Source: Candidatus Yanofskybacteria bacterium RIFCSPLOWO2_02_FULL_41_13 (GTDB lineage: Bacteria; Patescibacteriota; Minisyncoccia; 2-02-FULL-40-12; GWA2-44-9). From it: a stretch of 52,049 nucleotides of DNA. The notes under the pieces were generated by a model. The model was not told the origin of the DNA. It saw only the letters and a program-made list of their open reading frames with translations, and made no database searches. The stretch spans positions 1 through 52,049 of the forward strand of contig MGKQ01000020.1 in the NCBI GenBank assembly GCA_001795735.1, read 5' to 3'. This document shows, in pieces, positions 1,549 to 18,072 of the stretch. Every line of letters starts with the position of its first letter. Position 1 is the first letter of the stretch. The position numbers were made by a program, and so were the translations under genes.

Positions 1549-1550
1549 CT
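1506..1550. terminator. Bidirectional intrinsic terminator
   Basis: A perfect 19-bp stem (1506-1524 with 1532-1550) is rich in A/T at its base and closes a 7-nt loop. It ends in the last codons of the recombinase gene and should stop transcription from both directions. Confidence 0.8.
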
Positions 1551-2817: not shown

Positions 2818-2949
2818 CTTTGTTACTTCGACTGCTATTGGGGGTGGGAAAGCCCCCGAAATCCCTTGTGTTGGTATGCTATTCATACACTAAGGAATGA
2901 CGCTTTGGTGGTAGGAGTCCAGAGCGCCCCAAGAACCTAAAGTTGGTAA

Positions 2950-4482: not shown

Positions 4483-4885
4483 AGTTTCTAAGTGATGATA
4501 ATTTTAATGCTTGGCGTATAAGCCCCTTTTGAGTGGCGGTTAAAGGTTCATCTTTAGTAGAAACTGTTCCGGACAATTCCAGACGGTCGGCATAACGTGG
4601 ATTGTTGTGGCGGAGTACGTATTTTATTGCTTCTATCTTTTTGTCTTTTACTAGACTGAAGAGTTGCGACTCGGCAATATCAGAGATAAAAAGCCTGCCC
4701 TCGAATAGCGCTTCTTCAACCTGTTTCGCGAATTCTTTGCTGGCTTTAGTCCAACGATAGAATGTCATTCGGGAGATGCCAACCTTCTCGCAAGCAATTT
4801 CGATAATCGGCGTTCTCATCAATTGTTCCAGTACCGCTTTCTTTAATTTGGCCTGTCGGATTTTAATAGTTTTTTCCTTACTCAT
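4454..4885 (-). CDS. Terminase small subunit-like HTH protein
   Basis: This 143-residue protein should recognise packaging-site DNA and load the large subunit. The N-terminal helix-turn-helix runs through IIEIACEKVGISRMTFYRW, a typical small-terminase DNA-binding segment. A helical middle (ESQLFSLVKDKKIEAIKYVLRH) resembles the oligomerisation region, followed by the NNPRYADR phrase common in this family. It sits between the methyltransferase (4-nt ATGA overlap) and the large terminase (29-nt overlap), so the three are translationally coupled. The call rests on the motif plus position. The helix-turn-helix alone would not separate it from other regulators. Confidence 0.8.
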   Translation of the reverse strand: MSKEKTIKIRQAKLKKAVLEQLMRTPIIEIACEKVGISRMTFYRWTKASKEFAKQVEEALFEGRLFISDIAESQLFSLVKDKKIEAIKYVLRHNNPRYADRLELSGTVSTKDEPLTATQKGLIRQALKLSSLRNYGQNKKQQK

Positions 4886-5640
4886 AATTTTATCGCTTTA
4901 AGGTTAGTTAGTTTTTCGAAGCGGTCAATAATTGTTTGGCAATATTCTGAATCAAGTTCAACGCCGATACAGATTCTTTTGGTCTGTTCGCAAGCCAATA
5001 GCGTTGTACCTGAGCCCAGAAATCCATCATAAACAACATCTCCAATGCGAGTGCTGTTTAATATCAGTCGGCGAATTAATCCGATTGGCTTGGTGGTGGG
5101 GTGAAATGGGCTCTTGCTTGGTTTTGGATGGACGATTACGCTTCTATCTTTGGACTTGAGAAATTCGTGAGTGCCATACCAGCCATATGCAATCAGCTCG
5201 TGTTGCGGAGCGTAATCCATTCTACCTATCACAGCCTGAGTTTTAACCCAGATCAGAAGCTGGGCGAATTTGAACCCGACTTTCAAAATGCCTTCTCGCA
5301 AGGCGAAGATCATTTTGTCGGAGTTAAAGATGTAGAAGCTGTTCTTCTTTGTCAGATGTGGTTTTACCGTTTCGAGCCAATCTCGAGTAAATTTTACATA
5401 CTCCCCATCGCTCTGAATTTGATCATTGGCTATGACCTTGTTTTTTAACAAGGGCTGAAATCCTTCTTTGGATTCCGTGACAGCTACACCATAAGGAACA
5501 TCGCAGATCACTGCTTTTATTTTGTGTTCCCCAACCAACTGAGCAACAGCTTCTTTATTTCTCGCATCCCCACAAAGCAGCAGATGACTGCCCAGACAAA
5601 ACACAGAACCATGTTTAATTGAGTTTTTTGATTTGGTCAT
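4882..5640 (-). CDS. DNA N4/N6 methyltransferase
   Basis: This 252-residue protein is an amino-methyltransferase using S-adenosylmethionine to methylate adenine (N6) or cytosine (N4). Catalytic motif IV reads DVPYG, a variant of DPPY. Near the C terminus the AdoMet motif is DGFLGSGTTLLAC, followed by GVELDSEYC. Motif IV precedes motif I, which is the beta-class order. HPTTKPIGLIRRLI is the usual segment between them. The gene overlaps its neighbours on both sides in the packaging operon. No restriction enzyme gene is adjacent, so it probably protects or marks the element's DNA rather than forming an R-M pair. Confidence 0.85.
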   Translation of the reverse strand: MTKSKNSIKHGSVFCLGSHLLLCGDARNKEAVAQLVGEHKIKAVICDVPYGVAVTESKEGFQPLLKNKVIANDQIQSDGEYVKFTRDWLETVKPHLTKKNSFYIFNSDKMIFALREGILKVGFKFAQLLIWVKTQAVIGRMDYAPQHELIAYGWYGTHEFLKSKDRSVIVHPKPSKSPFHPTTKPIGLIRRLILNSTRIGDVVYDGFLGSGTTLLACEQTKRICIGVELDSEYCQTIIDRFEKLTNLKAIKL

Positions 5641-6895
5641 TTGATATTTTTTTAAAACGATTAATAATTACCTGGCAAAACACTGGCTCAAGTTCGCAGA
5701 GATATGCGGTACGTTTCATTTGCTCACAGGCCGACAAGATACTGCCTGACCCAGCCGTCAGATCTAATACGACGTCTCCAGGCTTGGTACAGCGACGCAA
5801 AGCCTTTTCGTGGAGTGTTGGATTTTTCTGAGTCGGGTGTTCGTACTGGTTACCTGGCAATCTTTTTACAAGCCATATATTTAAGAGATCCAGAATATCT
5901 TCGGTGAGCCGATTACCAGTGCCGACTTCTTTGTTTATGACCTCATTCAAATTTTTTACTTTATCCGATAAGTACGGCCGACCGATTGTTCCATATACGA
6001 TATACTCTGTGACCTTATTAAAGGCGATGTTGGGTGTGGGCGATGCATTGTCCTTAATCCATATTAATAACCGCTTAGAATTGATATCGAGCTCTTTATA
6101 TAGTTGCTGCAATAGCCAAACATTTCGTTCATCGCACCAGAACATAACATGGGCATCCGGTTTAGTAACCGAGAGCGCATTCTGGATAATCGACTTCACA
6201 AATTTTCTGTATTCAGCATCTGACTTATTATCATTCATTGTGCCACCGTAACTTCCTTTGTTACCGACACCACGATCGTATGACAACCCGATATTAAAAG
6301 GTAAATCATCATTTATTAGGTCGGCACGGATGTTGCCCATGAGTTTCTTCGCATTTTCTGGTTGAGTTGCGTCAGCACAAAGCAGTCGATGTCTCCCAAG
6401 AGCAAAATAGTCTCCGGGTTTGATAGTCGTGCTTTTGGCTTTTTGAATCTCTTTCTCATCTTCAAATTCATCATCTAGAATTTCAAGGTTGTCATCATAG
6501 ATGTTGCTGAGATCGATTGAATCAAAACCTGCTGTCAGCAATTCGCCTAGATCAAAATCAGTTGCCAATTTTTCCCAATCCCAAGACGCTCCTGACCTAT
6601 TTGAAGTCAGAAGGTAGTCTTTAAATTCTTTTTCGGTTAATTTGCGATTAGGAACTCTGACCTCGATTTCTTCACCCCCTCTACCTAGAAGAGATAATGC
6701 TAAGACACGCTGATTTCCAGCGACCAACGTTCCGTCTGTATTAATACAAGGCAGTTCGGCTACATTGTATTTTTTAAGGCTTCGTTGTAACCCAGCTAGT
6801 TGAACCTGGCTAAGTACTCTCGGATTTTTATCATATCTGACGAGATCCTTTACTCGTCTTTTCTCCGTGTGCCATTCCATTTTTTTTGTTGGCAT
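5615..6895 (-). CDS. ParB-N domain/DNA methyltransferase fusion
   Basis: This 426-residue protein has two parts. Residues about 10-100 form a ParB/sulfiredoxin-like domain (VKDLVRYDKNPRVLS, then LVAGNQRVLALSLLG). The C-terminal half is a beta-class DNA methyltransferase. Its motif IV is DLPFNIG, a variant of DPPF, followed late by HPTQKN and DLTAGSGSILSACE. Such fusions are common in phages and integrative elements. It is the first gene of the minus-strand operon and overlaps the next methyltransferase by 26 nt. Both methyltransferases have an altered motif IV. Whether they remain active cannot be read from sequence. Confidence 0.85.
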   Translation of the reverse strand: MPTKKMEWHTEKRRVKDLVRYDKNPRVLSQVQLAGLQRSLKKYNVAELPCINTDGTLVAGNQRVLALSLLGRGGEEIEVRVPNRKLTEKEFKDYLLTSNRSGASWDWEKLATDFDLGELLTAGFDSIDLSNIYDDNLEILDDEFEDEKEIQKAKSTTIKPGDYFALGRHRLLCADATQPENAKKLMGNIRADLINDDLPFNIGLSYDRGVGNKGSYGGTMNDNKSDAEYRKFVKSIIQNALSVTKPDAHVMFWCDERNVWLLQQLYKELDINSKRLLIWIKDNASPTPNIAFNKVTEYIVYGTIGRPYLSDKVKNLNEVINKEVGTGNRLTEDILDLLNIWLVKRLPGNQYEHPTQKNPTLHEKALRRCTKPGDVVLDLTAGSGSILSACEQMKRTAYLCELEPVFCQVIINRFKKISNDQIKKLN

Positions 6896-6965: not shown

Positions 6966-7444
6966 AATGAAAGAAGGCTATAAATCCAAGCAACAAACCA
7001 TTTTAGGTTAGTTACCTCGATTCATAGCCCTTTAGTAAATCCGTACGGGCGCTATAGCCTAATCGGACCCACTCAGTTTTTCTATAAATTCATTGAATCT
7101 TACTTTTCGCCTTATTGTTTTGCCACTGGGGACTAAAGCGACTAGTATATTCCGCCCCAGACTTCACGAATGGGGCAAAGGTGTATTTAGTTGTTCTCTA
7201 TGTACTTGATATAAGTATAGCCTTATAGAGAACACCTCACAAGTACCCTGTGGATAATGCTATAAATACGTATTCTGTCAAAATTCATAAAAGTGTTCCG
7301 AATTAGGTCTGTCGGTAAAGCCCCTTCGCAACCGCCCTTTTTTAAGCTTGAATGGACGCCTGGTCGATATTTTGCTAAAATTCCCTTAACAATTCATTAA
7401 GTAGCCTAAACTCCAGGTATTGTTGCTTGGGGCATGGCGAAAAG

Positions 7445-7485
7445 TCGTATAAGGCATAAAAACCCCATCATAGGGTCGCCTTATA
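7445..7485 (+). other. Stable hairpin in the leader of the nuclease-like gene
   Basis: CGTATAAGGC pairs perfectly with GCCTTATACG, and the 22-nt loop contains a further CCC/GGG pairing. Two smaller hairpins follow (GAGAC/GTCTC near 7508-7522 and TGGTGG/CCACCA near 7531-7553). This clustering suggests a structured 5' untranslated RNA rather than coding sequence. Confidence 0.45.
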
Positions 7486-7571
7486 CGCCGTATTGGGAAA
7501 CCAATGCGAGAGACTCCGGTCTCTACCTGTGGTGGGCTTTTTGTATCCACCATGGGTTAAATTATAAACCT

Positions 7572-8633
7572 ATGGCTATAATAATTTCCCAAAACGGCAA
7601 GAACGCCGTGAAGGTTGAGAAATCAACTTTCGAAAAAGAAGATTCTCTTCAGCAGTATATTTATCAAAACCCCGAGAGCATTCCTCTCTACGATATTAAG
7701 GAAGATATCCGCCTTCTAATATTAGCTCGGGAGTTCCCAACCAATAGCGGTCCGATTGACGCTATTGGAATTGATAAGTTCGGCGAGCTATATATTGTCG
7801 AAACCAAATTATACAAGAATCCAGATAAGCGAATCGTCATCGCCCAAGTAATTGATTACGGTGCCGCGCTTTGGAAGCACTCCAATGACTTCAATGAATT
7901 TCTCTCTATTCTGGATGAGCACACTCAAAGAGTTTTTAGTTTAAGGACAACGGAAAAAATTCAAAGCTTCTTCCAGCTTTCCGAAGAAGAAGCGACTGCC
8001 CTAATAGACAAGTCGAAACGCAATCTTAACGATGGCGTTTTTCATTTCGTAATTCTCATGGACAAGCTCGACGATCGATTGAAAGACTTAATTCTCTACG
8101 TTAACCAAAACAGCCAGTTTGATATCTACGCCGTTGAGCTCGAATACTACAAGCACGATACGTATGAAATAGTCATACCCAGAATTTTTGGAGCAGAGGT
8201 TAAGAAGGATATCGCGGTTTCATCAGGTTCAAGTGCAAGGCGAAAGTGGGACGAGCGATCTATGCTCGAAGATGCTAAACAAAAATTCAACCCTGATGAG
8301 TTGGTGTTATTTGAGAAAATCTACAATTTCTCCAAAGAAAATGCCGATCTCATAAACTTCGGCACTGGATCATATGCAACGTTTAGTCCGATCTTTGAAA
8401 AACTATGCTCTAAATCCTTATTTACTCTCGGTACTGATAAACGGCTCAGCTTTAACTTTGAATGGGTTGGTCATGACAATCCAGAAACAATGGGAAAACT
8501 TAAAGAAGGGCTAGATAAGATTGGATTCAAATTCAAAGAAGACTACTCCAATACTCGTCCTAGTTTTCCCTTCGAAGATTGGTCATTGAAAACGGATGAA
8601 ATAATACGGGTCATTAATAACTTACTTTCATAA
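7572..8633 (+). CDS. PD-(D/E)XK nuclease-like protein
   Basis: This protein of about 353 residues carries a nuclease-fold signature: D63 in GPIDAIGID, then E77-T-K79 in LYIVETKLY, giving the D...ExK catalytic triad. The rest (helices around LIDKSKRNLNDGVFHFVILMDK and a C-terminal FKEDYSNTRPSFPF segment) is unfamiliar. I start at ATG 7572, since the 46 residues coded from 7434 cover a hairpin-rich stretch and read like chance sequence. There is no clear Shine-Dalgarno for either start. It overlaps the next gene by one base (TAATG), suggesting translational coupling with the membrane nuclease. A role in DNA restriction or defence is inferred from the fold and the island context. Confidence 0.65.
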   Translation: MAIIISQNGKNAVKVEKSTFEKEDSLQQYIYQNPESIPLYDIKEDIRLLILAREFPTNSGPIDAIGIDKFGELYIVETKLYKNPDKRIVIAQVIDYGAALWKHSNDFNEFLSILDEHTQRVFSLRTTEKIQSFFQLSEEEATALIDKSKRNLNDGVFHFVILMDKLDDRLKDLILYVNQNSQFDIYAVELEYYKHDTYEIVIPRIFGAEVKKDIAVSSGSSARRKWDERSMLEDAKQKFNPDELVLFEKIYNFSKENADLINFGTGSYATFSPIFEKLCSKSLFTLGTDKRLSFNFEWVGHDNPETMGKLKEGLDKIGFKFKEDYSNTRPSFPFEDWSLKTDEIIRVINNLLS

Positions 8634-9637
8634 TGAAAATTATCCAATTACCGAAAAATAAGTTTCTCAAGGTTCTTTCGGTGTCATTATTGGGCATAAT
8701 TGGCCTCATTCTCTGGCCATTTACAGTCGGAGGATTAATAGTCTTTCAAGTTAATAAGCGGATTAAGTTACGGAGGTTAAGACTAGGCTTGATAATTGTT
8801 GTTAGTATTGCCGGAATACTGTTCGGCTCAGTATGGACTTGGGCTTTATTCTCCGGCTCTAGTCCAGTTACTGTCACGGAAAAAGTGGCGGAAGAAAATA
8901 TAATTCTTGATCCGAGTCCGACAGAAAGTGTAAGTCCCAATAATAGAGAGTCGGATGCTAGTCCTCAGGGGACAACTAACTCAAATCCAAAAGTTAGCAC
9001 CAAGTCCACACCAAGTTCGTCATCTGCACCTACTTACCAAGTTGTGAAAGTCGTTGATGGCGATACTCTCGATCTTAGTATTAATGGCAAGACAGAACGA
9101 ATAAGATTGATTGGTATCAATACCCCGGAAACCGTAGATCCCAGGAAACCAGTTGAATGTTTTGGTATCGAGGCTTCCAATAAAGCTAAGGCAACTCTTT
9201 CTGGAAAGTATGTATCTCTTGAGAAAGATGCCAGTCAAGGCGATAGAGATAAGTATGGCAGACTGCTTGGCTATATCTTTCTCGCTGACGGCACTAACTT
9301 CAATAAGATGATGATTCAGCAGGGCTATGCCTATGAATATACCCATGGTACTCCGTATAGATACCAAGTTGAATTTAAGAAAGCCCAACAAGAAGCTCAA
9401 GTCGCCAAAGCTGGACTTTGGGCTTCTGATGTATGTGATGGAAACTTAAGTCCTACACCAGCACCAGTCAATGGTCACATCTTCTATCTCAGTACCTATT
9501 ACAGTGCTAAATACTACTACTGTGACACGGATGAGGGCTGGAAATCTCTATCGACTCAATATCTGAAGTCTTATCCGTCAGAATCGGCTTTGCTAAAAGA
9601 CTATCCTAATAGAACTTTGCACGAGGCATGTAGGTAG
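8633..9637 (+). CDS. Membrane-anchored staphylococcal-type nuclease
   Basis: This 334-residue protein is a thermonuclease-family phosphodiesterase held on the membrane. Two hydrophobic segments at about residues 12-33 and 43-62 are followed by a Ser/Thr/Pro linker and an SNase domain (about 133-270). Catalytic residues are present: VDGDT at 141-145, R158 and E166 in RLIGINTPE, and R210 in DKYGR, equivalent to R35, E43 and R87 of the S. aureus enzyme. A C-terminal Cys-containing domain (YYCDTDEGW to HEACR) follows. The domain is probably extracytoplasmic, acting on external DNA for uptake, nutrition or defence. It converges with the reverse transcriptase gene with a 3-nt gap. Confidence 0.85.
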   Translation: MKIIQLPKNKFLKVLSVSLLGIIGLILWPFTVGGLIVFQVNKRIKLRRLRLGLIIVVSIAGILFGSVWTWALFSGSSPVTVTEKVAEENIILDPSPTESVSPNNRESDASPQGTTNSNPKVSTKSTPSSSSAPTYQVVKVVDGDTLDLSINGKTERIRLIGINTPETVDPRKPVECFGIEASNKAKATLSGKYVSLEKDASQGDRDKYGRLLGYIFLADGTNFNKMMIQQGYAYEYTHGTPYRYQVEFKKAQQEAQVAKAGLWASDVCDGNLSPTPAPVNGHIFYLSTYYSAKYYYCDTDEGWKSLSTQYLKSYPSESALLKDYPNRTLHEACR

Positions 9638-9640
9638 GGG

Positions 9641-10693
9641 TTATTCAGTCAGCCAAAAGAATATTTCATTTTCCAATTCTTGTTGTAGCTCGAACGAGTT
9701 GCTATGAGAAAGTATGCCCAGATATGAATTTATGCTCTGACCTAAAGATTCCAAAGTACGCTGTTTCCGTTTATATAACAAAATATTGCCATGTATTTTA
9801 TCAAATATTCTGTCCCTAGTCCTGTCTCTGGGTATCACGAAATGAGGAAAACAAACATAACCCAAGAAATCCACGCCTTGGCTAAACTTTCTGATCGTAA
9901 TTTTATTGGGATGCAGTTCAAGCTTAAGAACATCTTTAAGAAATCTGTTTATCGACTTTACGATCTCCAAACAATGATCTCTTTGAGGGTGTAGTATCAC
10001 GAAATCATCTGCATAACGAATGTAATGCTTTTCTTTCAACTGATGCTTCATGAATTGGTCGAGCTCATTGAGATACACATTGGCAAAAAGCTGTGAGGTC
10101 AGATTTCCAATTGGCAATCCCTTAGGCTCCTCGGGGTTAATTGTAAATTCTGATTTAAAACTTGAGACAACTTCATTTATTAACCACCGCGCATCAGGAT
10201 CAGTAACTTGCTTAAATACGATGTCTATCAGAACTTTATGATCAATGCTGGCGAAGAATTTTCTGACATCACATTTGAGCACCCAGCATGGAATAGTCCA
10301 ATTCTTGCTGACCTGTCGGGCATGTTCGGTAAAAGCCTCTACTCCCCGATGAGTACCTTTATCGATTCGGCAAGAGTATGAGTCGTAAATAAAGTTTGGC
10401 TCAAAGATGGGATTGAGATGTTTCACAATCGCATGGTGCAAAACTCGATCACGGACTAATGCTTTGTGAATATGCCTCACCTTTGGATCTTGGACGAAAA
10501 AAGAAGAGTACCCCGAATGCTTATACGTCCTATCCGCAAGAATGCGATGAAGCTCCCAAATGTTATCCTCCAAGTTATGTTCAAAGATGAGCGTATCTCT
10601 CCGATGTTTTTTGCCAATTCGAAATTCCCTCCACGAAATTACTAAATTCTCCAAACTAATAATTTGATCAAAAATATTATGGAAAACTCTCAT
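9641..10693 (-). CDS. DGR reverse transcriptase
   Basis: This 350-residue RNA-directed DNA polymerase copies the template RNA and misincorporates at adenines in mutagenic retrohoming. The fingers/palm order is complete: catalytic D142 in LKCDVRKFF, the motif GLPIGNLTSQ at 192-201 (a variant of the DGR-diagnostic motif 4), catalytic YADD at 227-230, and GVDFLGY at 273-279. There is no maturase or endonuclease domain, and the protein ends soon after the thumb, as in DGR enzymes. The template repeat lies on the same strand upstream. Its start overlaps the divergent Avd-like gene by 15 nt. The group II intron reading is rejected because a matching TR/VR set is present. Confidence 0.95.
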   Translation of the reverse strand: MRVFHNIFDQIISLENLVISWREFRIGKKHRRDTLIFEHNLEDNIWELHRILADRTYKHSGYSSFFVQDPKVRHIHKALVRDRVLHHAIVKHLNPIFEPNFIYDSYSCRIDKGTHRGVEAFTEHARQVSKNWTIPCWVLKCDVRKFFASIDHKVLIDIVFKQVTDPDARWLINEVVSSFKSEFTINPEEPKGLPIGNLTSQLFANVYLNELDQFMKHQLKEKHYIRYADDFVILHPQRDHCLEIVKSINRFLKDVLKLELHPNKITIRKFSQGVDFLGYVCFPHFVIPRDRTRDRIFDKIHGNILLYKRKQRTLESLGQSINSYLGILSHSNSFELQQELENEIFFWLTE

Positions 10694-11053
10694 AACTATG
10701 ATGGTAAATTTAGCTTAGATATTCCTATCTTTAAGAAAACGTACGATTTCTTAAAAGAATTCTATATCTTTGAACTAGATTTTCCAAAGAAAGATCGCTA
10801 CACACTCGGACAGCGTTGCGAAGAATACATCCTAAAGATTCTCGAGGGTATTATGCTTGCGGCTCAAACAAGTAAAAGCCACAAACTGCCGATCCTAGAG
10901 TCGGTCAGCAATAAGCTCGATATGCTAAAAGTATTTATCCGGTTAGCAAGCGATGTCGATGCACTCAGTGACGCTAGATATATTGTTTGCCAAAATCACA
11001 TTCAAGAAATCGGCAAAATGCTTGGCGGTTGGATTCGATCCACTCGCGAGTAA
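10679..11053 (+). CDS. avd: Avd-like four-helix-bundle accessory protein
   Basis: This all-helical basic protein of 124 residues is the expected DGR accessory factor, which in studied systems forms a ring, binds the reverse transcriptase and template RNA, and is needed for mutagenic cDNA synthesis. The helices run roughly IPIFKKTYDFLKEFYIF, RYTLGQRCEEYILKILEGI, PILESVSNKLDMLKVFIRLA and a final helix ending in GKMLGGWIRSTRE. I prefer ATG 10679; a TTG at 10664 would add five residues. It is divergent from the reverse transcriptase, with the two start regions overlapping. A 14-bp hairpin closes the gene. The assignment rests on size, helix pattern and position. Confidence 0.85.
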   Translation: MENSHNYDGKFSLDIPIFKKTYDFLKEFYIFELDFPKKDRYTLGQRCEEYILKILEGIMLAAQTSKSHKLPILESVSNKLDMLKVFIRLASDVDALSDARYIVCQNHIQEIGKMLGGWIRSTRE

Positions 11054-11084
11054 GTAATAGGCCTTCGAAAGAAGGCCTATTACT
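11053..11084. terminator. Perfect hairpin between avd and the template repeat
   Basis: A 14-bp perfect stem (11053-11066 with 11071-11084) closes a GAAA tetraloop and overlaps the avd stop codon. A short T-rich tract follows on the plus strand, so it should terminate avd. On the minus strand it lies just 3' of the template repeat and has no U-tract. There it could serve as the 3' structure of the template RNA rather than a terminator. Confidence 0.75.
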
Positions 11085-11096
11085 TTAACTTAGACA

Positions 11097-11219
11097 AAAC
11101 TACCGAGAGGGGCAGACGCCGAGATTGGAGTTCGTGTTGTCACGGGTATCGTTGTTGACGTTGAGACCATCCGAATCGAAGTTGCCAACGTTGACGAAGT
11201 TGCCGTCGGACGACTGAAC
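11097..11219 (-). repeat. DGR template repeat (TR)
   Basis: This 123-nt sequence, read on the minus strand, aligns without gaps to the three variable repeats. Read in the target frame it contains eight AAC codons and one AAT, so adenine mutation yields many residues but never a stop at those codons. Twenty-five adenines lie in the mutable core. The last eight codons before TAG have no adenine, giving a GC-rich 3' end as expected for the homing-initiation segment. It is on the same strand as the reverse transcriptase and opposite to the targets. Confidence 0.97.
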
Positions 11220-11560: not shown

Positions 11561-12388
11561 ATGCCATTTGAAGCCTATAAAATCTACGAAGAGTACGAGC
11601 CAGACAAATACAAGACCTCCACTCAAAAGAAAGTAGAGCAAGCTTTGGATACCGCCAAAAAGGAGGGCTTAGTACCTGAGGGTAAAGAAGTTAATATTGA
11701 ATTCCAAGAAGCCGAAGAAATTCTAGGTAAAGACTTCTTGGGGCCGGAAGCGGTTCAAGCTACTTTTAACGTAGAATTAACCCCTGAAGAATTACAGGAA
11801 ATTGAAAATATACCATTCACCAGAGAAGATTTAGAACAAGCCAAGCAATTGGGTATGATGCTGGTTTTAAGAGTACCTCGACTTGGTGAAGGCAAGACGG
11901 AACGGCCATTAACTATGGATTCGGCTAGAGAGTTATTTGCTGGCGGTGACACGCTTGGAGATCCTAAGAAAAAGAAGCAGAAAGTTTTTTATGGTAAAAA
12001 AGGAGAAAGCTGGTACGACAACGAAGGGTTCGCCACTCAAGAAACTCCTAAGCTTGGCTGGGGCTTAGTCATGAAATCAGTTCTACCAGATTCGTTGGAC
12101 AAGAACTGGGATCAGCAAGAAGATATTTTAAAGAAATGGGCAAAGGACAATAATATTGATCCGACCCTTGTTAAAAGAAGGACCCCGGTCGAAATTGCTT
12201 ATGACACCTTGATATATTATGGTGCAAACAAGGAGTCACTGTTAGAGGGTAAATATGATTGGTCCGGCGTTCAGTCGTCCGACGGCAACTTCGTCAACGT
12301 TGGCGCCTTCGTTTCGGATGGTCTCAGCGTCAACAACGATACCCGTGACAACACGCTCTCCCATCTCGGCGTCTGCCCCTCTCGGTAG
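11561..12388 (+). CDS. DGR target protein 1 (variable C terminus)
   Basis: This 275-residue cytosolic protein, with no signal peptide, is diversified by the retroelement. Residues 1-45 are charged and helical (YKIYEEYEPDKYKTSTQKK). The middle carries FLGPEA, LTPEELQEIENIPFTREDLEQAKQLGMMLVLRVPR and LGDPKKKK. The C-terminal module from about residue 160 (SWYDNEGFATQ to VCPSR) should be the ligand-binding fold, C-type-lectin-like in most DGR targets. Residues 237-275 are the variable repeat. It differs from the template at seven adenines, giving five altered residues. It is followed by the MoxR ATPase gene. Its ligand is unknown, and the lectin-like fold is inferred from the DGR setting. Confidence 0.9.
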   Translation: MPFEAYKIYEEYEPDKYKTSTQKKVEQALDTAKKEGLVPEGKEVNIEFQEAEEILGKDFLGPEAVQATFNVELTPEELQEIENIPFTREDLEQAKQLGMMLVLRVPRLGEGKTERPLTMDSARELFAGGDTLGDPKKKKQKVFYGKKGESWYDNEGFATQETPKLGWGLVMKSVLPDSLDKNWDQQEDILKKWAKDNNIDPTLVKRRTPVEIAYDTLIYYGANKESLLEGKYDWSGVQSSDGNFVNVGAFVSDGLSVNNDTRDNTLSHLGVCPSR

Positions 12389-12391
12389 TTT
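12269..12391 (+). repeat. Variable repeat VR1
   Basis: This 123-bp copy of the template forms the end of target 1 and includes its stop codon. All seven differences from the template are at template adenines: AAC to GCC, GAT to GTT, AAC to AGC, AAC to CTC, and AAT to CAT. It is the least diversified of the three. Confidence 0.97.
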
Positions 12392-12451
12392 CGCCTTGGG
12401 TGCTTGGTCTCCTTGATCCTTATTGATTCCTTGGTCTTTCGAAAAATTTTT
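12392..12451 (+). repeat. Conserved 60-bp flank after VR1
   Basis: This non-coding block starts CGCCTTGGGTGC and ends AAAAATTTTT. It matches the sequence after VR3 exactly over 60 bp by eye and the sequence after VR2 with about three or four changes. The template repeat is not followed by it. Confidence 0.85.
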
Positions 12452-12491
12452 TAAACTGGTAAAATCTATGTAAAAATGTAACATTTATTAT

Positions 12492-14186
12492 ATGTCTAAC
12501 TCAAAAGAATCACTCCCACCGATACCAAATATGCCCACTACTCCTGAACGAATTATTCAGGAAAGAGGCGTAGATGCCACAAAAGAAAAAGAAAAACTCT
12601 CGCCAGAGCAACTTGAAGCCAGAGTCCAAGAACTCATGGACTTATCGGCGGCTCGAGCCGAAGCCTCTAAACATGTCCGTGAATCTTGGGGCGGTCTCAC
12701 TAAAGATGAGCGCGAGGAATTAAAGAAAGAGGAAGGTCAAAATACAGGAGCTGTAGCAGCTCAATTCGACGCTCTCAAAGTTGACCCAGAGCTGGCAGAA
12801 TTTTCTGAAAATGTCCTCGCCGAGTACGATCAGCGTATCCAAGAGCTGGGAAGCAACCCCAAAGTCATAGAAGCATATGGTGAGCGTTTTGAAGGAATGA
12901 AAGACGCTTTAGCTAAAGTTCTAGAGTATGAGCATATTCAGAAAGAACTCGATGCGATTACTAGTAGCGAACAGAAACTGCGTTTAATGTATGAAAAAGT
13001 CGGACGTTCACCCGGTCCGATTGAGCGAACCAAACTGACCGATTTGGCAAAGCGTAAAGAAGAACTCCAAAAAGAAATAAGTGGTTTTGAGTTGGATCCG
13101 GCATCGATTGACATGCTTCGACGCCGAGAGGTTCGGGGTATGCAAAGAGATTTAGAGCGTTACAACTTTGCTGAAACTGAATCCCGCACCGAACTCATTA
13201 GAGAAGTTTTACCTGACCTACTCCATGGCGCACCAATTCTATTTCAAGGTGAAACCGGCTCGGGCAAAACCCAGTTAGCTAAATATATTTCTCACAGATT
13301 TTTAGGCCACGAAGTATCGCCAATTTCTATCTCCGAACAGATTAAAGAATCCCAAATCATGGGAAGGGTTACACTGAAAGAAGGTGCCACCGATTTTCTG
13401 TACTCTGAAATGGTCAAAAGCATGAAAGAGGGCCGTCCAGTAATCATGGATGAGATCAACTTGATGCCTCATGAATTTCAAGGCATCCTCAATGAAATTT
13501 TCCAATTACGAATTGGTAGCACATGGAAGCACCCCTCTACCGGAGAATCAATCAAAGTTGCCCCTGGCTTTGTGATCTTTGCTACTGCCAACCTTAAGTC
13601 AGAACGCTACAAGCAACGCTATGAACTAGATGTTGCCACTCTAAGACGTTTCATCGGTGGTGCCGGTGCCAGAGAAATTCACTACTTGGATCTAGGCAAG
13701 AAAAGCAAAGAGGGAGAGTATATCGCACCAGAGACACTTAAGATTCTTGCCTCAGTGTTGGCAGATCGAAACGGCAACATTATTTGGAGCGAACAAGAAT
13801 CACCTCAAAAACTTGATGAGCTAAAACGTTTTGTTGGTGCTTGCCGCAAAATTCAAGAAGACTTTACTTTGAGCGTTAGGGAAGGCTCTGAAGATTCATT
13901 GTCTCGAGGTGACAAATTGGCTTTCAAAGAATTAGTCATTACGCTCAAAGACCAGATTGAGATTATGAAAGCATGGAAAGCATCTGGTTTTGCCGAACCA
14001 CTAGAAAGTATTGTCCTAAGAGAGTTTTTCAGAAAAGCTGAAATAAGCGGCCGAGCAGCCAAGGACAGGGAAAATATGGTCAAAGTGTTTATGGCTAATA
14101 AATTCTTCAAAGACACTGACCCAGAAGACTTTAATATCCAAGGGTTATCCTCTAAAACTGTTCGCCAGTGGCAAGGTAAAGAATAA
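12492..14186 (+). CDS. MoxR-type AAA+ ATPase
   Basis: This 564-residue AAA+ protein should remodel or activate partner proteins using ATP, typically together with a VWA-domain protein. The N-terminal 230 residues are charged and probably coiled-coil. The AAA core has Walker A GETGSGKT at 253-260, Walker B VIMDEIN with D320/E321, sensor 1 ATAN with N367, and an arginine-rich LRRF nearby. A helical C-terminal region follows. It lies between target 1 and target 2, and the VWA protein comes two genes later. The next target starts 5 nt after this gene stops, so cotranscription is likely. MoxR-VWA pairs are known in cofactor insertion, chaperone and proposed conflict systems; the last fits best here. 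Confidence 0.88.
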   Translation: MSNSKESLPPIPNMPTTPERIIQERGVDATKEKEKLSPEQLEARVQELMDLSAARAEASKHVRESWGGLTKDEREELKKEEGQNTGAVAAQFDALKVDPELAEFSENVLAEYDQRIQELGSNPKVIEAYGERFEGMKDALAKVLEYEHIQKELDAITSSEQKLRLMYEKVGRSPGPIERTKLTDLAKRKEELQKEISGFELDPASIDMLRRREVRGMQRDLERYNFAETESRTELIREVLPDLLHGAPILFQGETGSGKTQLAKYISHRFLGHEVSPISISEQIKESQIMGRVTLKEGATDFLYSEMVKSMKEGRPVIMDEINLMPHEFQGILNEIFQLRIGSTWKHPSTGESIKVAPGFVIFATANLKSERYKQRYELDVATLRRFIGGAGAREIHYLDLGKKSKEGEYIAPETLKILASVLADRNGNIIWSEQESPQKLDELKRFVGACRKIQEDFTLSVREGSEDSLSRGDKLAFKELVITLKDQIEIMKAWKASGFAEPLESIVLREFFRKAEISGRAAKDRENMVKVFMANKFFKDTDPEDFNIQGLSSKTVRQWQGKE

Positions 14187-14191
14187 CCACT

Positions 14192-15010
14192 ATGCCATTT
14201 GAAGCCTATAAAATCTACGAAGAGTACGAGCCAGACAAATACAAGACCTCCACTCAAAAGAAAGTAGAGCAAGCTTTGAGTTCAGCGAAAAAAGAAGGTC
14301 TTATACCAGAAAGAAAAGAAGCGAGTATTGAGTTTGAGGAAGCTAGAGAAATCTTTGGCAAGGACTTTCTTGGTCCTGAATCTGCTGAAGCCACTTTCGG
14401 TGTTGAGTTATCACAAGAAGAACTGGAGCAAATTGAAGATATCCCATTCTCTCGAGAAGAATTAGAACAAGCCAAACAGCTTGGCATGATGCTTGTTTTG
14501 AGAGTGCCCAGAATCGGCAAAGAGAAAAATGCTAAATCATTTAGCATCAACAGTGTGCGAGAGGCTTTTAAAGACGACGATAAGTTGGGCGATCCTAAAA
14601 AGAAGAAATCAAATATCTTTTACGATCAAGATTGGTACGACAATGAATCGTTTGCTACCCAAGACACTCCCTCACTAGGGTGGGGCCTCGTTATGAAAGA
14701 AGTGTTACAAGAATCACGAAGCAAGAATTGGGACGAGCAGGAAGAAGCTCTTAAAGCATGGGCCAAGGAAAACAATATTGACCCTGCAAAAGTTAGGCGC
14801 AGAAAACCAATAGAGATTATTTACGATACCCTCCTTTACTACGGCACCAACAAGGAATCGCTTTTGGAAAACTCCTATGATTGGTCCGGGGTTCAGTCGT
14901 CCGGCGGCAACTTCGTCTTCGTTGGCCTCTTCGATTCGGGTGGTCTCTTCGTCGGCAACGTTCCCCGCGGCTACACGCTCTCCAATCTCGGCGTCTGCCC
15001 CTCTCGGTAG
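14192..15010 (+). CDS. DGR target protein 2 (variable C terminus)
   Basis: This 272-residue paralogue of target 1 has the same layout. Its first 87 bases are identical to those of target 1, although the rest of the body is clearly diverged. The linker after LRVPR is shorter and the YGKKGES segment is reduced. The variable repeat spans residues 234-272 and is the most diversified of the three, with 16 adenine-site changes plus one silent change elsewhere. Several positions become hydrophobic (Phe, Leu), suggesting a different ligand. Its ATG lies 5 nt after the MoxR stop, with no clear Shine-Dalgarno of its own, so translational coupling is likely. Confidence 0.9.
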   Translation: MPFEAYKIYEEYEPDKYKTSTQKKVEQALSSAKKEGLIPERKEASIEFEEAREIFGKDFLGPESAEATFGVELSQEELEQIEDIPFSREELEQAKQLGMMLVLRVPRIGKEKNAKSFSINSVREAFKDDDKLGDPKKKKSNIFYDQDWYDNESFATQDTPSLGWGLVMKEVLQESRSKNWDEQEEALKAWAKENNIDPAKVRRRKPIEIIYDTLLYYGTNKESLLENSYDWSGVQSSGGNFVFVGLFDSGGLFVGNVPRGYTLSNLGVCPSR

Positions 15011-15013
15011 TTT
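14891..15013 (+). repeat. Variable repeat VR2
   Basis: This 123-bp copy of the template has 17 differences, 16 of them at template adenines (for example AAC to TTC, CTC, GGC or TAC). The exception is a silent T-to-C change at 14968 (CGT to CGC). Confidence 0.97.
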
Positions 15014-15073
15014 CGCCTTGGGTGCTTGGATTCCTTGATCCTTATTGATCCCTTGGTCTTTCGAAAAATTTTT
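15014..15073 (+). repeat. Conserved 60-bp flank after VR2
   Basis: This is the same block as after VR1 and VR3, with small changes (GGATTCC for GGTCTCC and GATCCCTT for GATTCCTT). It ends 10 nt before the VWA gene and may overlap its translation signals. Confidence 0.8.
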
Positions 15074-15083
15074 ATAAACCACA

Positions 15084-17078
15084 ATGCCCCCAGAATCATT
15101 CCCCATAAATCGAATAGAACCTCCTCAAGACGAGCCTAAGCCAGAGGTCTCCACGAATGAAGGCGAAGTTGATGCTCAAGCAGTTGAGGAATTTTTAAAT
15201 CGGGAAACAGAACTCTTAGCCGCTTACGGATTAAAAGGCGACATAACTTTGGAGAGAGGAAATGGTGGCTGGGCGTTTGATTTTCAAAACCGAAAACTCA
15301 TTTATGACCCCAAGTTCTTTATTGAACGAGGATACAGCCTGCAAGAGACTCTCTTTGCTACTACCCATGAACTCATGGCTCACTATGGCGAGCTGATGCG
15401 TGACCCGGAGCTTGTTTTAAGGGAAGCCAAGCGTTATAGCGCCAAAGGCCACCTCCATCTTTTGTACAACATCTTTGAAGATGTATTAGGTAATAGACGC
15501 ATTGTTGCCGAACTACCATTTCTAGAACAAACCAGAGAAGATCTTTACCGAGAAAAGATGTTTCCCCCTACTGACTACACCGATAAGTCATCTCATGTTC
15601 AATTTACTTACGGTTTTATTCGACAAATGATGGTGCCGGGTGAAGCAGTACAACTTGGACCGGAGGCTCAGGCCGCTTTAGATAAGTTGCGAAGTTTTGG
15701 CTCTGACAAAATAGATATTCTTGACCTCGTTACAACCCCGACAATTGATCCCAAAGATCGCTTTCGCATCATGCGAACGATTGTTGAACCTATTTACCGA
15801 GAACTCTACGAGAAAGATTTAGAAGAAGAGAAGAAAAGCGGTAAAAGTCAGGATCAAGGTGAAGGTTCGCCCACAGACACTCAGGTTTCTGATAAACCTC
15901 AACAGGGTCAGGGTTCGGGTCAGGAAAAGAAAAAATGGTGGCAAAGAAAAAAAGAAACTCCTCAAGAAGGAAAAGACAAAGAGGAACAACAACCTGGCAA
16001 AGGCGTAGATAAAAAGTCCAGTGATCGTGCCGCCAGAGAAGCGGCTGAAAAGAAGTTCAAAGAAGAATATAAGGCGTACCACGATGGTCACCCAGAGCCT
16101 ATAACGCATGCGGAGGAAAAGCAGATCAAGAAGTTGATGGAAGAAATCGTTGCCAAGAAAGGCGGCGAGCCAACTCTTGAGCAACACATTCTTGAAGAAT
16201 GGGCTCGTGAGCATGGAGTTAATGCCGAAGATGTTCTCGGATATCGAAAAGAATATGCAGAGATTGCCCCGCTGGTAGCTGAACTCCGGGAGGTTTTTAA
16301 ACAAATCATTTCTCGCCGACTAAAGGAACGCTGGAAGTTTTCCCCACAACTTGAAACTGAAGGCGAAGAGTTATCAGAGGATACTCTCGTTGAATCTTCC
16401 ATTGAATCCCAAACTGGAGGTCAGCCTAGGGCTTTTCGAGAACTTGAGAAGCACAAGAAAGAACAAGAAGGCTACGGCATGTTAGACATGACCCTGGTCA
16501 ATGACTTGTCTGGCTCTATGAATGAGGGTGGTAAGCTTGTGATGGATCGTAAAAGTAAACTCTTATTCTTAGAATCCTTGGCTGATTTCCAAAAAGAAAT
16601 TGAACAAGCTGAATATGAGAGTGGTGTTTCTCTCGGTCTGCAAGTAAGAACCGAAACCCGAGCATTTGGTGATTTCGGTGACACTGAGCTTAAAGAACTC
16701 TCAACTGATCTATCCGAGAAAGACAGAATCGGTATTTGGAAGAAAATGCACAAGGCTGGTGGCGGTACACCCGATTACCTATCTTTAAACGAAGTCTTGA
16801 AATCGATCACTCCGGAACAAGAGAAAGAATTACGCGAAAAACTAAGAAGAAAGATAGTCGTTGTTCTTTCTGATGGCGACAGTCAAGATGCTGGTAAAGT
16901 TCAGAGCATCCTTCTTCAGCTACGAAATAAGGGTGTTATGGTATTGGGTCTTGGCATGACCGAATCTGGTCAAGCCGTTAAAGAAACATATAAACCTGAC
17001 GCTGAGGTTATCGTTGATATCAATACATTGCCACAGGCAGTTCAAAAAGTTATTCTAAAATATACTCAAGACCTATAA
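15084..17078 (+). CDS. VWA-domain protein with N-terminal metallopeptidase-like region
   Basis: This 664-residue protein is the likely VWA partner of the MoxR ATPase. The N-terminal region contains THELMAH (H95-E96...H100), an HExxxH pattern close to but not matching the zincin HExxH, followed by a YNIFEDVLGNRRI helix. This resembles predicted metallopeptidases fused to VWA. A long Lys/Glu/Gln-rich linker spans about residues 245-330. The VWA domain has the MIDAS motif D474-L-S476-G-S478, a downstream GGGTPDY and VVVLSDGDS. A Mg-dependent adhesion or conformational switch role is expected. It ends one base before target 3. Whether the peptidase part is active is doubtful. Confidence 0.85.
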   Translation: MPPESFPINRIEPPQDEPKPEVSTNEGEVDAQAVEEFLNRETELLAAYGLKGDITLERGNGGWAFDFQNRKLIYDPKFFIERGYSLQETLFATTHELMAHYGELMRDPELVLREAKRYSAKGHLHLLYNIFEDVLGNRRIVAELPFLEQTREDLYREKMFPPTDYTDKSSHVQFTYGFIRQMMVPGEAVQLGPEAQAALDKLRSFGSDKIDILDLVTTPTIDPKDRFRIMRTIVEPIYRELYEKDLEEEKKSGKSQDQGEGSPTDTQVSDKPQQGQGSGQEKKKWWQRKKETPQEGKDKEEQQPGKGVDKKSSDRAAREAAEKKFKEEYKAYHDGHPEPITHAEEKQIKKLMEEIVAKKGGEPTLEQHILEEWAREHGVNAEDVLGYRKEYAEIAPLVAELREVFKQIISRRLKERWKFSPQLETEGEELSEDTLVESSIESQTGGQPRAFRELEKHKKEQEGYGMLDMTLVNDLSGSMNEGGKLVMDRKSKLLFLESLADFQKEIEQAEYESGVSLGLQVRTETRAFGDFGDTELKELSTDLSEKDRIGIWKKMHKAGGGTPDYLSLNEVLKSITPEQEKELREKLRRKIVVVLSDGDSQDAGKVQSILLQLRNKGVMVLGLGMTESGQAVKETYKPDAEVIVDINTLPQAVQKVILKYTQDL

Positions 17079-17079
17079 T

Positions 17080-17907
17080 ATGCCATTTGAAGCCTACAAA
17101 ATCTACGAAGAATACGAGCCAGACAAGTACAAAACCTCTACCCAAAAGAAAGTAGAGCGGGCTTTGGATTCAGCAAAGAAAGAAGGTCTTGTACTAGAAA
17201 GAAAAGAAGTTAACTTAGAGTTTGATGAAGCCAAAGAGATATTTGGTAAAGACTTTCTCGGTCCCGAAGCTATTAAGACTACTTATGGAGTAGAGCTTAG
17301 CCCAGAGGAATTACAAGAAATTGAAAACATACCGTTTACCAGAGAAGATTTGGAGCAGGCTAAACAGCTTGGCATGATGCTTGTCCTCAGGGTGCCGAGA
17401 CTTGGTGAGGGTAAAAACGAAAAGCCTCTTACCATAGATCAAATTCGTGAAAAGTTCTCTGGAGGAGACACTCTCGGTGACCCTAAGAAAAAGAAGCAGA
17501 AAATGTTTTATCGCAAAAAGGGTGAAGGCTGGTATGACACCGAAGCATTTGCCACTCAAGAAACTCCTAAGCTTGGTTGGGGCTTGGTCATGAAATCAGT
17601 GCTACCTGATTCACTGGGCAAGAACTGGGATCAGCAGGAAGATGTACTCAAAAACTGGGCTAAACAAAATAACATCGATCCGGCTTTAGTGAAGCGCAGA
17701 ACCCCAGTTGAAATCGCTTACGACACATTTCTCTATTACGGCGAGAACAAAGAAACTCTACTAGAAGATAAATGGGATTGGTCCGGCGTTCAGTCGTCCG
17801 ACGGCTACTTCGTCCGCGTTGGCATCTTCGATTCGGATGGTCTCTACGTCGACCACGGTACCCGTGACTACGCGATCTCCATTCTCGGCGTCTGCCCCTC
17901 TCGGTAG
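17080..17907 (+). CDS. DGR target protein 3 (variable C terminus)
   Basis: This 275-residue third paralogue begins one base after the VWA gene stops. Its body is closest to target 1 (for example LGWGLVMKSVLPDSL and KRRTPVEIAYDT), but its 5' end differs from the other two at many silent sites. The variable repeat covers residues 237-275 and carries 12 differences from the template, all at adenines. They introduce Tyr, Arg, Ile, Asp and His, the kind of residues seen in diversified binding surfaces. It is the last gene of the target/MoxR/VWA operon and is followed by the conserved 60-bp block. Confidence 0.9.
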   Translation: MPFEAYKIYEEYEPDKYKTSTQKKVERALDSAKKEGLVLERKEVNLEFDEAKEIFGKDFLGPEAIKTTYGVELSPEELQEIENIPFTREDLEQAKQLGMMLVLRVPRLGEGKNEKPLTIDQIREKFSGGDTLGDPKKKKQKMFYRKKGEGWYDTEAFATQETPKLGWGLVMKSVLPDSLGKNWDQQEDVLKNWAKQNNIDPALVKRRTPVEIAYDTFLYYGENKETLLEDKWDWSGVQSSDGYFVRVGIFDSDGLYVDHGTRDYAISILGVCPSR

Positions 17908-17910
17908 TTT
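17788..17910 (+). repeat. Variable repeat VR3
   Basis: This 123-bp copy of the template has 12 differences, every one at a template adenine. Examples are AAC to CGC, ATC, TAC, GAC or CAC, ACG to GCG, and AAT to ATT. Confidence 0.97.
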
Positions 17911-18004: not shown

Positions 18005-18072
18005 GCTTGATAATCCAAGAGAAGTGGTCTAGACTTTGCCTTATATGTCCCCAAAAAGGAACTTTAAACCAT

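What the first reader, a model, noticed from the sequence alone, without database searches (positions are those of the whole stretch)
11561..17907. DGR targets interleaved with a MoxR ATPase and a VWA protein: a diversified conflict module
Seen: the order is target 1, MoxR AAA+, target 2, VWA (with HExxxH N-terminal region), target 3, with 5-nt and 1-nt spacings, one strand. Known: MoxR ATPases work with VWA partners. MoxR-VWA ternary modules have been proposed as counter-invader conflict systems, and DGR-linked versions have been discussed (recalled, not checked). Inferred: each target is a variable recognition subunit that would load onto the NTPase/VWA machine on sensing a ligand. The targets lack signal peptides, so the ligand should be intracellular, unlike most DGR adhesins. 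I do not know whether this exact layout is described.
Basis: partly seen in the sequence, partly recalled or inferred. Interest (0 to 1): 0.93.

Follow-up and report, generated by a model that had tools for sequence, protein, structure and literature searches.

The report
Swappable-receptor operon in tiny bacteria
[quoted passage not shown] it looks like a detection system inside the cell, perhaps against viruses, but no function has been tested.

Summary
RT, Avd and TR (9641-11219) serve three targets interleaved with a MoxR-clade AAA+ and a VWA protein; 35 of 36 TR/VR mismatches lie on TR adenines. The layout is no accident: in all 8 loci of the close VWA clade VWA has targets on both sides, four with the full target-MoxR-target-VWA-target order. 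Of 56 VWA loci in Patescibacteria, 42 have a MoxR nearby and 29 an RT or RT remnant within 10 kb; in the phylum-wide sample 11 of 27, against about 1.4% expected.

Beyond the finding: the third component is a constant tail plus an exchangeable C-terminal domain. The tail (residues 1-16 identical in 11 of 11 targets, predicted disordered) is kept while the rest changes: hypervariable lectin fold, another lectin type, LRR-like, helical-repeat or WD40-like. VWA N-terminal domains also alternate (HExxH or transglutaminase-like). The module sits beside a methylase-terminase-recombinase element whose other cargo includes restriction systems and CBASS parts.

Best reading: cytoplasmic sensors docked on a MoxR-VWA-peptidase-like switch, a Patescibacteria variant of the published MoxR-vWA conflict systems, without their VMAP, iSTAND or FtsH parts. 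Function is inferred, not shown.

The parts
9641..10693 (-). DGR reverse transcriptase (RT)
   Evidence: RVT_1 E 3.8e-26; YADD visible in the translation
10679..11053 (+). Avd (accessory variability determinant); ATG at 10679, a TTG at 10664 is possible; divergent from RT, 5' ends overlap
   Evidence: bAvd E 4.1e-19; NF033474 DivGenRetAVD above cut-off
11097..11219 (-). template repeat (TR)
   Evidence: matches the three VRs with mismatches at TR adenines only, one exception
11561..12388 (+). target T1: constant tail (about residues 1-43), conserved domain, C-terminal variable region
12269..12391 (+). VR of T1
   Evidence: 7 of 7 mismatches at TR adenines
12492..14186 (+). MoxR-clade AAA+ ATPase (AAA_5)
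   Evidence: Pfam AAA_5 E 6.5e-20; P-loop and DE invariant in 14 aligned relatives
14192..15010 (+). target T2
14891..15013 (+). VR of T2
   Evidence: 16 of 17 mismatches at TR adenines
15084..17078 (+). VWA protein: N-terminal HExxxH domain (HELMAH at residue 95), charged linker, C-terminal VWA with MIDAS DLSGS
   Evidence: VWA E 1.3e-5; model best matched by Rea1-MIDAS and NorD VWA
17080..17907 (+). target T3
17788..17910 (+). VR of T3
   Evidence: 12 of 12 mismatches at TR adenines
1549..2886 (-). large serine recombinase of the neighbouring mobile element
   Evidence: Resolvase E 8.2e-19, Recombinase E 1.2e-15
2950..4482 (-). terminase-large-subunit-like protein of the element
   Evidence: phrog_38 E 1.4e-84
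4454..4885 (-). terminase-small-subunit-like protein of the element
   Evidence: phrog_4102 E 3.9e-7
4882..6895 (-). two DNA methyltransferases of the element (4882-5640; 5615-6895, the latter with a ParB-like N-terminus)
   Evidence: N6_N4_Mtase; phrog_498 and phrog_620
7434..9637 (+). nuclease-like protein (7434-8633; PADLOC candidate PDC-S11) and SNc-type nuclease (8633-9637), also seen near related modules

Best explanation
This is a cytoplasmic detection module. Each target is a sensor: its constant N-terminal tail docks it onto the MoxR-VWA machine and its C-terminal C-type-lectin-fold tip, rewritten by the DGR, binds a ligand inside the cell. Ligand binding lets the MoxR ring hydrolyse ATP and remodel the VWA protein, which exposes or releases its N-terminal peptidase-like (HExxxH) domain; that stops the invader or the cell. 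The module is one cargo of a Patescibacteria mobile element that also carries defence genes. SHOWN by computation: the DGR and its adenine-specific variation; conservation of MoxR, VWA and targets as a unit; constant tail with exchangeable C-terminus; lectin fold; MoxR-partner type of VWA; company of the mobile element. INFERRED: docking of the tail on VWA or MoxR, order of signalling, peptidase output, invader as ligand.
For: Order kept in other genomes, at 91% VWA identity across families. MoxR beside VWA in 42 of 56 loci, RT within 10 kb in 29 of 56; phylum sample 11 of 27 against 1.4% expected. Tail residues 1-16 identical in 11 of 11 targets although predicted disordered. In L099 three partners share 93-98% of the first 45 residues but 17-23% of the last 150 (lectin type, helical repeats, another lectin type); L139 has ten partners, two ending in WD40-like repeats; L040 four with LRR-like repeats. 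In L082 the window's tail sits on an unrelated lectin tip. Partner type changes at least 5 to 7 times on the VWA tree. T1 model (pLDDT 87) is closest to TvpA, itself a DGR target (Z 9.1); VWA to Rea1-MIDAS and NorD (Z 21 and about 19.5). VWA N-terminus: HExxH in 29 of 48, HExxxH in 5, neither in 14; Transglut_core in 11 of 33 scanned. Element company and cargo.
Against: No binding, enzymatic or phage data. HExxxH in the window clade is not the canonical HExxH, so catalysis there is doubtful. G020 keeps VWA and targets but no MoxR was found in the genome. Relatives of the targets occur in DGRs without MoxR or VWA in the stretch fetched (8 of 8 loci). A VWA locus of L088 has neither MoxR nor target in view. 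The tree count of partner changes (7) is no lower than for shuffled labels (mean 8.4). The PADLOC test of element cargo had no control set. Terminase genes allow an element-serving role.
Confidence: 0.58

Rival explanations
1. The module serves the mobile element rather than the cell: it senses competing elements or phages, or host factors, and secures the element's persistence.
For: The methylase-terminase-recombinase set flanks the module in the window, L077, L081 and L083 and in the distant L153 and L155; terminase genes are phage-like; patchy distribution with 91% VWA identity across families.
Against: Most of the 56 loci showed no element genes within the stretch (clear element sets in 6 loci, weaker hits in 4 more); the same element carries ordinary defence systems, which protect the cell as well.
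Confidence: 0.2
2. MoxR-VWA is an assembly or maturation chaperone that loads or exports diversified adhesins used to hold the host cell in episymbiosis.
For: MoxR-vWA pairs are described as assembly factors (Kaur 2020, section 8); Dore 2024 suggests host interaction as a role for some CPR DGRs (passage).
Against: No signal peptide or membrane segment in any of the five proteins; partners end in LRR-like, WD40-like or helical repeats elsewhere; VWA carries peptidase-like domains of two different folds.
Confidence: 0.14
3. Partners are effectors or substrates rather than sensors: MoxR-VWA unfolds or releases hypervariable binders which act by dominant-negative binding.
For: Kaur 2020 places the FGS domain among effectors (passages); the same gene data fit.
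Against: Partner tips are binding folds without a catalytic signature in Pfam or NCBIfam; peptidase-like domains sit on VWA instead.
Confidence: 0.06
4. Neighbourhood by chance.
For: MoxR or RT is missing in some relatives (G020, G029).
Against: Recurrence through the phylum, binomial tail about 5e-14 for 11 of 27.
Confidence: 0.02

Closest known systems
MoxR-vWA ternary conflict systems of Kaur et al. 2020 (PMC7159879; passages and sections 8 and 22 read), VMAP kind with DGR
   Same: MoxR-clade AAA+ with vWA co-chaperone, DGR-linked hypervariable lectin-fold domain, proposed intracellular sensing
   Different: Variable domain is on separate proteins with a constant tail, not fused to vWA; no VMAP, iSTAND or FtsH; vWA carries an HExxxH, HExxH or transglutaminase-like N-terminal domain; Patescibacteria, which that paper left out of its multicellularity statistics
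DGR-diversified antigen-sensor loci of Dore et al. 2024 (PMC10907252; passages read), clade 5A-5E
   Same: DGR target beside MoxR ATPase; targets proposed as sensors
   Different: [quoted passage not shown] the loci here are CPR and have MoxR, VWA and peptidase-like domains. The RT clade of the window was not determined
CPR DGR targets with an AAA ATPase fused to a lectin domain (Paul et al. 2017, not held; known here only as quoted in Dore 2024)
   Same: Distant relatives here have exactly that fusion (L038, L085, L087, L091, L093, L102)
   Different: In the window clade the lectin part is separate and triplicated; the VWA partner gene next to the fusion is the added observation
TvpA of Treponema denticola and Mtd of phage BPP-1 (DGR target structures 2y3c, 1yu3)
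   Same: C-type-lectin fold of the variable domain (Z 9.1 and 6.9)
   Different: Those act outside the cell or on the virion (recalled); here no export signal and a docking tail
NorQ-NorD and midasin/Rea1 MIDAS
   Same: VWA part of the window protein is closest to these partners of MoxR-clade ATPases
   Different: No peptidase-like N-terminal domain and no DGR in those (recalled)

Membership tests
Diversity-generating retroelement | DGR-type RT gene | tested here: met
   RVT_1 E 3.8e-26; adjacent Avd and TR
Diversity-generating retroelement | Avd | tested here: met
   NF033474 93.2 bits, cut-off 80
Diversity-generating retroelement | TR/VR pairs differing at TR adenines | tested here: met
   35 of 36 mismatches
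Diversity-generating retroelement | variable region in a C-type-lectin fold | tested here: met
   AF2 model pLDDT 87.1, pTM 0.81; TvpA Z 9.1, rmsd 3.3, 148 aligned; Foldseek alone gave only weak E 0.3 or more
Diversity-generating retroelement | present-day mutagenic activity | not testable with these tools
   needs reads of a population
MoxR-vWA ternary conflict system (Kaur 2020) | MoxR-clade AAA+ gene | tested here: met
   AAA_5 E 6.5e-20, AAA_3 E 0.003; clade-defining helix-2 insert not examined
MoxR-vWA ternary conflict system (Kaur 2020) | vWA protein with MIDAS aspartates | tested here: met
   DLSGS; D474, S476, S478, D597 invariant in 19
MoxR-vWA ternary conflict system (Kaur 2020) | one of the four published third components (VMAP, iSTAND, FtsH, propeller-fused vWA) | tested here: not met
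   targets match no Pfam or NCBIfam family; VWA matches only VWA models
MoxR-vWA ternary conflict system (Kaur 2020) | effector domain, often peptidase | tested here: inconclusive
   HExxxH in window clade, HExxH in 29 of 48, Transglut_core in 11 of 33; activity unknown
DGR-VMAP variant | lectin/FGS domain fused to vWA | tested here: not met
   targets are separate genes
CPR AAA-lectin DGR target | lectin domain fused to the ATPase | tested here: not met
   window MoxR ends without a VR; fusion with adenine-specific VR seen in relatives L038, L085, L087, L091, L093, L102
Known anti-phage system (PADLOC 2023) | match of MoxR, VWA or target to a model | tested here: not met
   targets T1 and VWA none; MoxR only weak generic AAA matches, best 3.2e-5

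The most novel reading that the evidence does not exclude
A plug-in receptor system of Patescibacteria: a constant AAA+/VWA/peptidase-like switch to which any binding fold can be coupled by a short constant docking tail, with one branch of receptors rewritten on demand by a retroelement, and the whole set spread by mobile elements. It would be a bacterial counterpart of a constant-region/variable-region receptor system working inside the cell, and the function of a large part of the so far unexplained CPR DGR targets.
Probability: 0.35. Interest if true: 0.93.

Novelty: new variant of a known kind. Interest (0 to 1): 0.8.

Why it matters
Roux 2021 (PMC8144416, passages) leaves open what the domain-less, non-membrane DGR targets of CPR bacteria do, and Dore 2024 found its CPR/DPANN clade not linked to conflict domains. 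Here a set of CPR DGRs is tied, again and again, to a MoxR-VWA pair with peptidase-like domains, and the partner proteins show a constant tail with exchangeable tips. That gives a concrete, testable hypothesis for the docking site (tail residues 1-16, VWA MIDAS), for the switch (MoxR ATPase) and for the output (VWA N-terminal domain), in organisms in which little defence is understood, and it names a mobile element whose cargo slot can be searched for further unknown systems.

Tried and rejected
Chance neighbourhood: rejected by the recurrence. Family names for the targets: no Pfam, NCBIfam or PADLOC match. Foldseek on T1: no hit at E 0.001 or better; only the second look by VIA-align gave a clear lectin fold. 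The N-terminal HExxxH part of the VWA model was not covered by the structure matches (spans 385-664) and was not folded alone, so its fold is untested; model quality is modest (pTM 0.44). Viral contigs: six loci, all generic VWA beside MoxR without DGR; so the module is not seen in viral contigs at that sensitivity. Hairpin behind the VRs: no conserved G+C-rich inverted repeat. Reverse test of the element: of 20 further terminase loci fetched out of 43 listed matches, the MoxR-VWA module is in 0 and a DGR in 1; the element is a carrier of varied cargo, not part of the module. Rfam: nothing at the module; LOOT RNA at 7403-7524. Papers: five with DGR+MoxR+vWA, three with DGR+CPR+AAA, seven with DGR+Patescibacteria, three with DGR+MoxR+CPR, three with DGR+defense system+CPR, none with Patescibacteria+MoxR+von Willebrand or Patescibacteria+terminase+serine recombinase; so I found no description of this layout in that library, which lacks Paul 2017 and most subscription journals. 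RT clade placement was not attempted.
Full report
1. What is there. The window is contig C20:1-52049 of a 1.02-Mb, 26-contig genome, 97.8% complete; relatives with the same module are named Candidatus Yanofskybacteria and other Patescibacteria. On the + strand lie T1, MoxR, T2, VWA and T3 with gaps of 103, 5, 73 and 1 nt. Upstream, on the - strand, lie RT (9641-10693) and TR (11097-11219); Avd (10679-11053) is on the + strand, divergent from RT. TR/VR mismatches fall on TR adenines in 7 of 7, 16 of 17 and 12 of 12 cases. No export signal or membrane segment was found in the five proteins.

2. The close clade. Searching 95 relatives with T1 gave 12 genomes, three of them with close copies: G011, G020 and G029. 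A scan of named genome contigs with a 4+3-row VWA alignment (22 loci) added L080-L083. In these 8 loci (window, L077=G011, L078=G020, L079=G029, L080, L081, L082, L083) VWA has targets on both sides in 8 of 8; the full order T-MoxR-T-VWA-T stands in 4 of 8 (window, L077, L079, L081). L083 lacks the first target, L078 lacks MoxR and one target, L080 begins at a contig end, L082 has an RT fragment between target and VWA. VWA is 91% identical between the window and G029, which belongs to another family, so the module has moved. G029 shows how the retroelement is lost: sequence around the RT end in L017 (7615-7858) is 91% like L019 8444-8686, and the match resumes at L017 9365 / L019 8688, so RT, Avd and TR are gone while the three targets remain. 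G020 lost MoxR; none was found in that genome.

3. Linkage in the phylum. I collected 56 VWA loci without identical copies (window; 22; L099, L100, L102-L105 from the class search and its wider regions; 27 of the 28 regions from the phylum search; L162 was dropped because no VWA frame was called, although it has MoxR, a target and RT). A MoxR profile hit lies within 6 kb in 39 of 56 (two of these hits, L085 and L092, fell on a partner or fragment, but a MoxR frame is present in both); three more were recognised by eye or P-loop (L105, L098, L152), making 42. Of the other 14 loci, several end near a contig edge. An RT lies within 10 kb in 29 of 56, two of them fragments (L082, L089). In the phylum-wide sample alone, which was drawn without regard to RT, it is 11 of 27. 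A control search gave 82 RT matches in 145 phylum genomes of roughly 0.9 Mb, that is about 1.4% expected per locus; binomial tail about 5e-14. The VWA profile was built partly from RT-linked members, so some bias remains.

4. Two forms of target. In the window clade, L105, L148, L138 and L151 the variable lectin part is a separate protein; in L038, L085, L087, L091, L093, L097, L102, L144, L146, L153, L155, L159 and L163 it is (or is also) fused to the end of MoxR, with adenine-specific TR/VR pairs (in L102 part of the TR reads N). L105, L148 and L153 again interleave separate targets with MoxR.

5. Constant tail, exchangeable tip. Residues 1-16 are identical in 11 of 11 close targets, yet the model of T1 gives residues 1-18 and 36-43 a pLDDT under 50, with a helix at 20-34 and a folded body from about 45: a conserved disordered segment, typical of a docking motif (inference). 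In L082 the same tail (YKIYEEYxPDxYKTSxQKKVE) carries an unrelated lectin tip. In L099 three partners placed as X-MoxR-X-VWA-X share 93-98% of residues 1-45 but 17-23% of the last 150: lectin type like T1, helical repeats, another lectin-like tip. L139 holds ten partners with 44-86% identity in the first 45 residues and 16-40% in the last 150, two of them ending in WD40-like repeats. L040 has four with LRR-like repeats, L143 two with helical repeats of the L099 type, L149 a leucine-rich-repeat protein (NCBIfam internalin models), L154 four with helical repeats, L145 repeats of WG type (repeat names by eye except L149). Relatives of the T domain in 8 loci without MoxR or VWA in view (L020-L027) lack this tail. 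On a tree of 56 VWA proteins the partner type (lectin 32, repeat 9, 15 unlabelled) needs 7 changes, at least 5 forced by well-supported branches; shuffled labels need 8.4 on average, so the type is not inherited in a clustered way (labels assigned by me).

6. The switch. The T1 model is closest to TvpA, a DGR target (Z 9.1, rmsd 3.3, 148 aligned). The VWA part of the window protein is closest to Rea1-MIDAS (Z 21.1) and NorD in the NorQD complex (Z 19.4-19.6), that is to partners of MoxR-clade ATPases. H95, E96, H100 and D133 and the MIDAS residues are invariant in 19 aligned VWA proteins, though the window clade has HExxxH where most have HExxH. Of 48 VWA proteins 29 have HExxH in the first half, 5 HExxxH, 14 neither; 11 of 33 scanned match Transglut_core (the call names L104 only). 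So the N-terminal domain is peptidase-like and of two different folds, which suggests that it is the output (inference).

7. The mobile element. Left of the module lie a large serine recombinase, terminase-like large and small subunits and two methyltransferases. The same set surrounds the module in L077, L081 and L083 and in the distant L153 and L155. In L155 a SAVED protein and a SMODS nucleotidyltransferase follow; in L077 a KAP NTPase. The terminase occurs in 36 of 361 phylum genomes; in 20 of the further loci that I fetched, the module is in 0 and a DGR in 1. Of 10 large cargo frames, chosen by size except L155, 8 match defence models at E 1e-15 or better (type I and III restriction, PDC-S28, PDC-S53, SAVED effector). 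There was no control set for that count.

8. What it most likely does. Kaur 2020 (sections 8 and 22 and passages read) proposes that vWA captures a peptide and MoxR releases it in an altered state; Dore 2024 (passages) proposes that DGR targets sense antigens and relay through MoxR. The present anatomy fits that, with the sensor as a separate, tailed, interchangeable subunit and a peptidase-like domain on VWA as output. Steps from ligand to output are inferred. Rivals (service to the element, adhesin assembly, binders as effectors) are given with their tests.

9. Known or new. DGR membership is met on all testable features. Membership in the four published ternary kinds is not met for the third component. 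I therefore call it a new variant of a known kind. I found no description of it in the library searched, which lacks Paul 2017.

Noticed in passing
window 7403-7524: LOOT RNA (RF03000, 83.5 bits, E 2.3e-14), overlapping the start of the nuclease-like gene at 7434, between the mobile-element genes and the DGR.
   Followed up: no
window 10664-10693: Avd and RT are divergent and their 5' ends overlap (15 nt if Avd starts at 10679); Avd opposite to RT recurs in most CPR loci seen (e.g. L038, L087, L093, L100, L103, L148).
   Followed up: partly
G000:C9:28357, G000:C20:68404, G000:C22:18778: The same 1-Mb genome has three further RT genes beside the window's one; one (L164 5450-7366) has a 638-residue target with 17 of 17 adenine-site mismatches.
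   Followed up: partly
L019 8444-8688 (G029): Scar of a deleted RT-Avd-TR with all three targets kept: a frozen receptor set.
   Followed up: yes
L018 (G020): MoxR and one target missing between repeated target genes; the remaining first target looks like a T2/T1 chimera, as loop-out recombination between targets would give.
   Followed up: partly
L097 9509-16493: A genome that needs TGA read as sense carries VWA, a MoxR-lectin fusion and RT: the system reaches the recoded CPR lineages.
   Followed up: partly
L156 8535-11936: One frame of 1133 residues matches both VWA and the serine recombinase.
   Followed up: no
window 82-987: 301-residue protein with HEIGHSH next to the recombinase, another possible metallopeptidase.
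   Followed up: no
window 18007-21339: Long helicase-like frame (ResIII, DEAD; PADLOC PbeA E 1.8e-16) directly after T3.
   Followed up: no
L189 17456-19901: Terminase element with its own DGR (16 of 16 adenine-site mismatches) and a 300-residue target without Pfam match.
   Followed up: no
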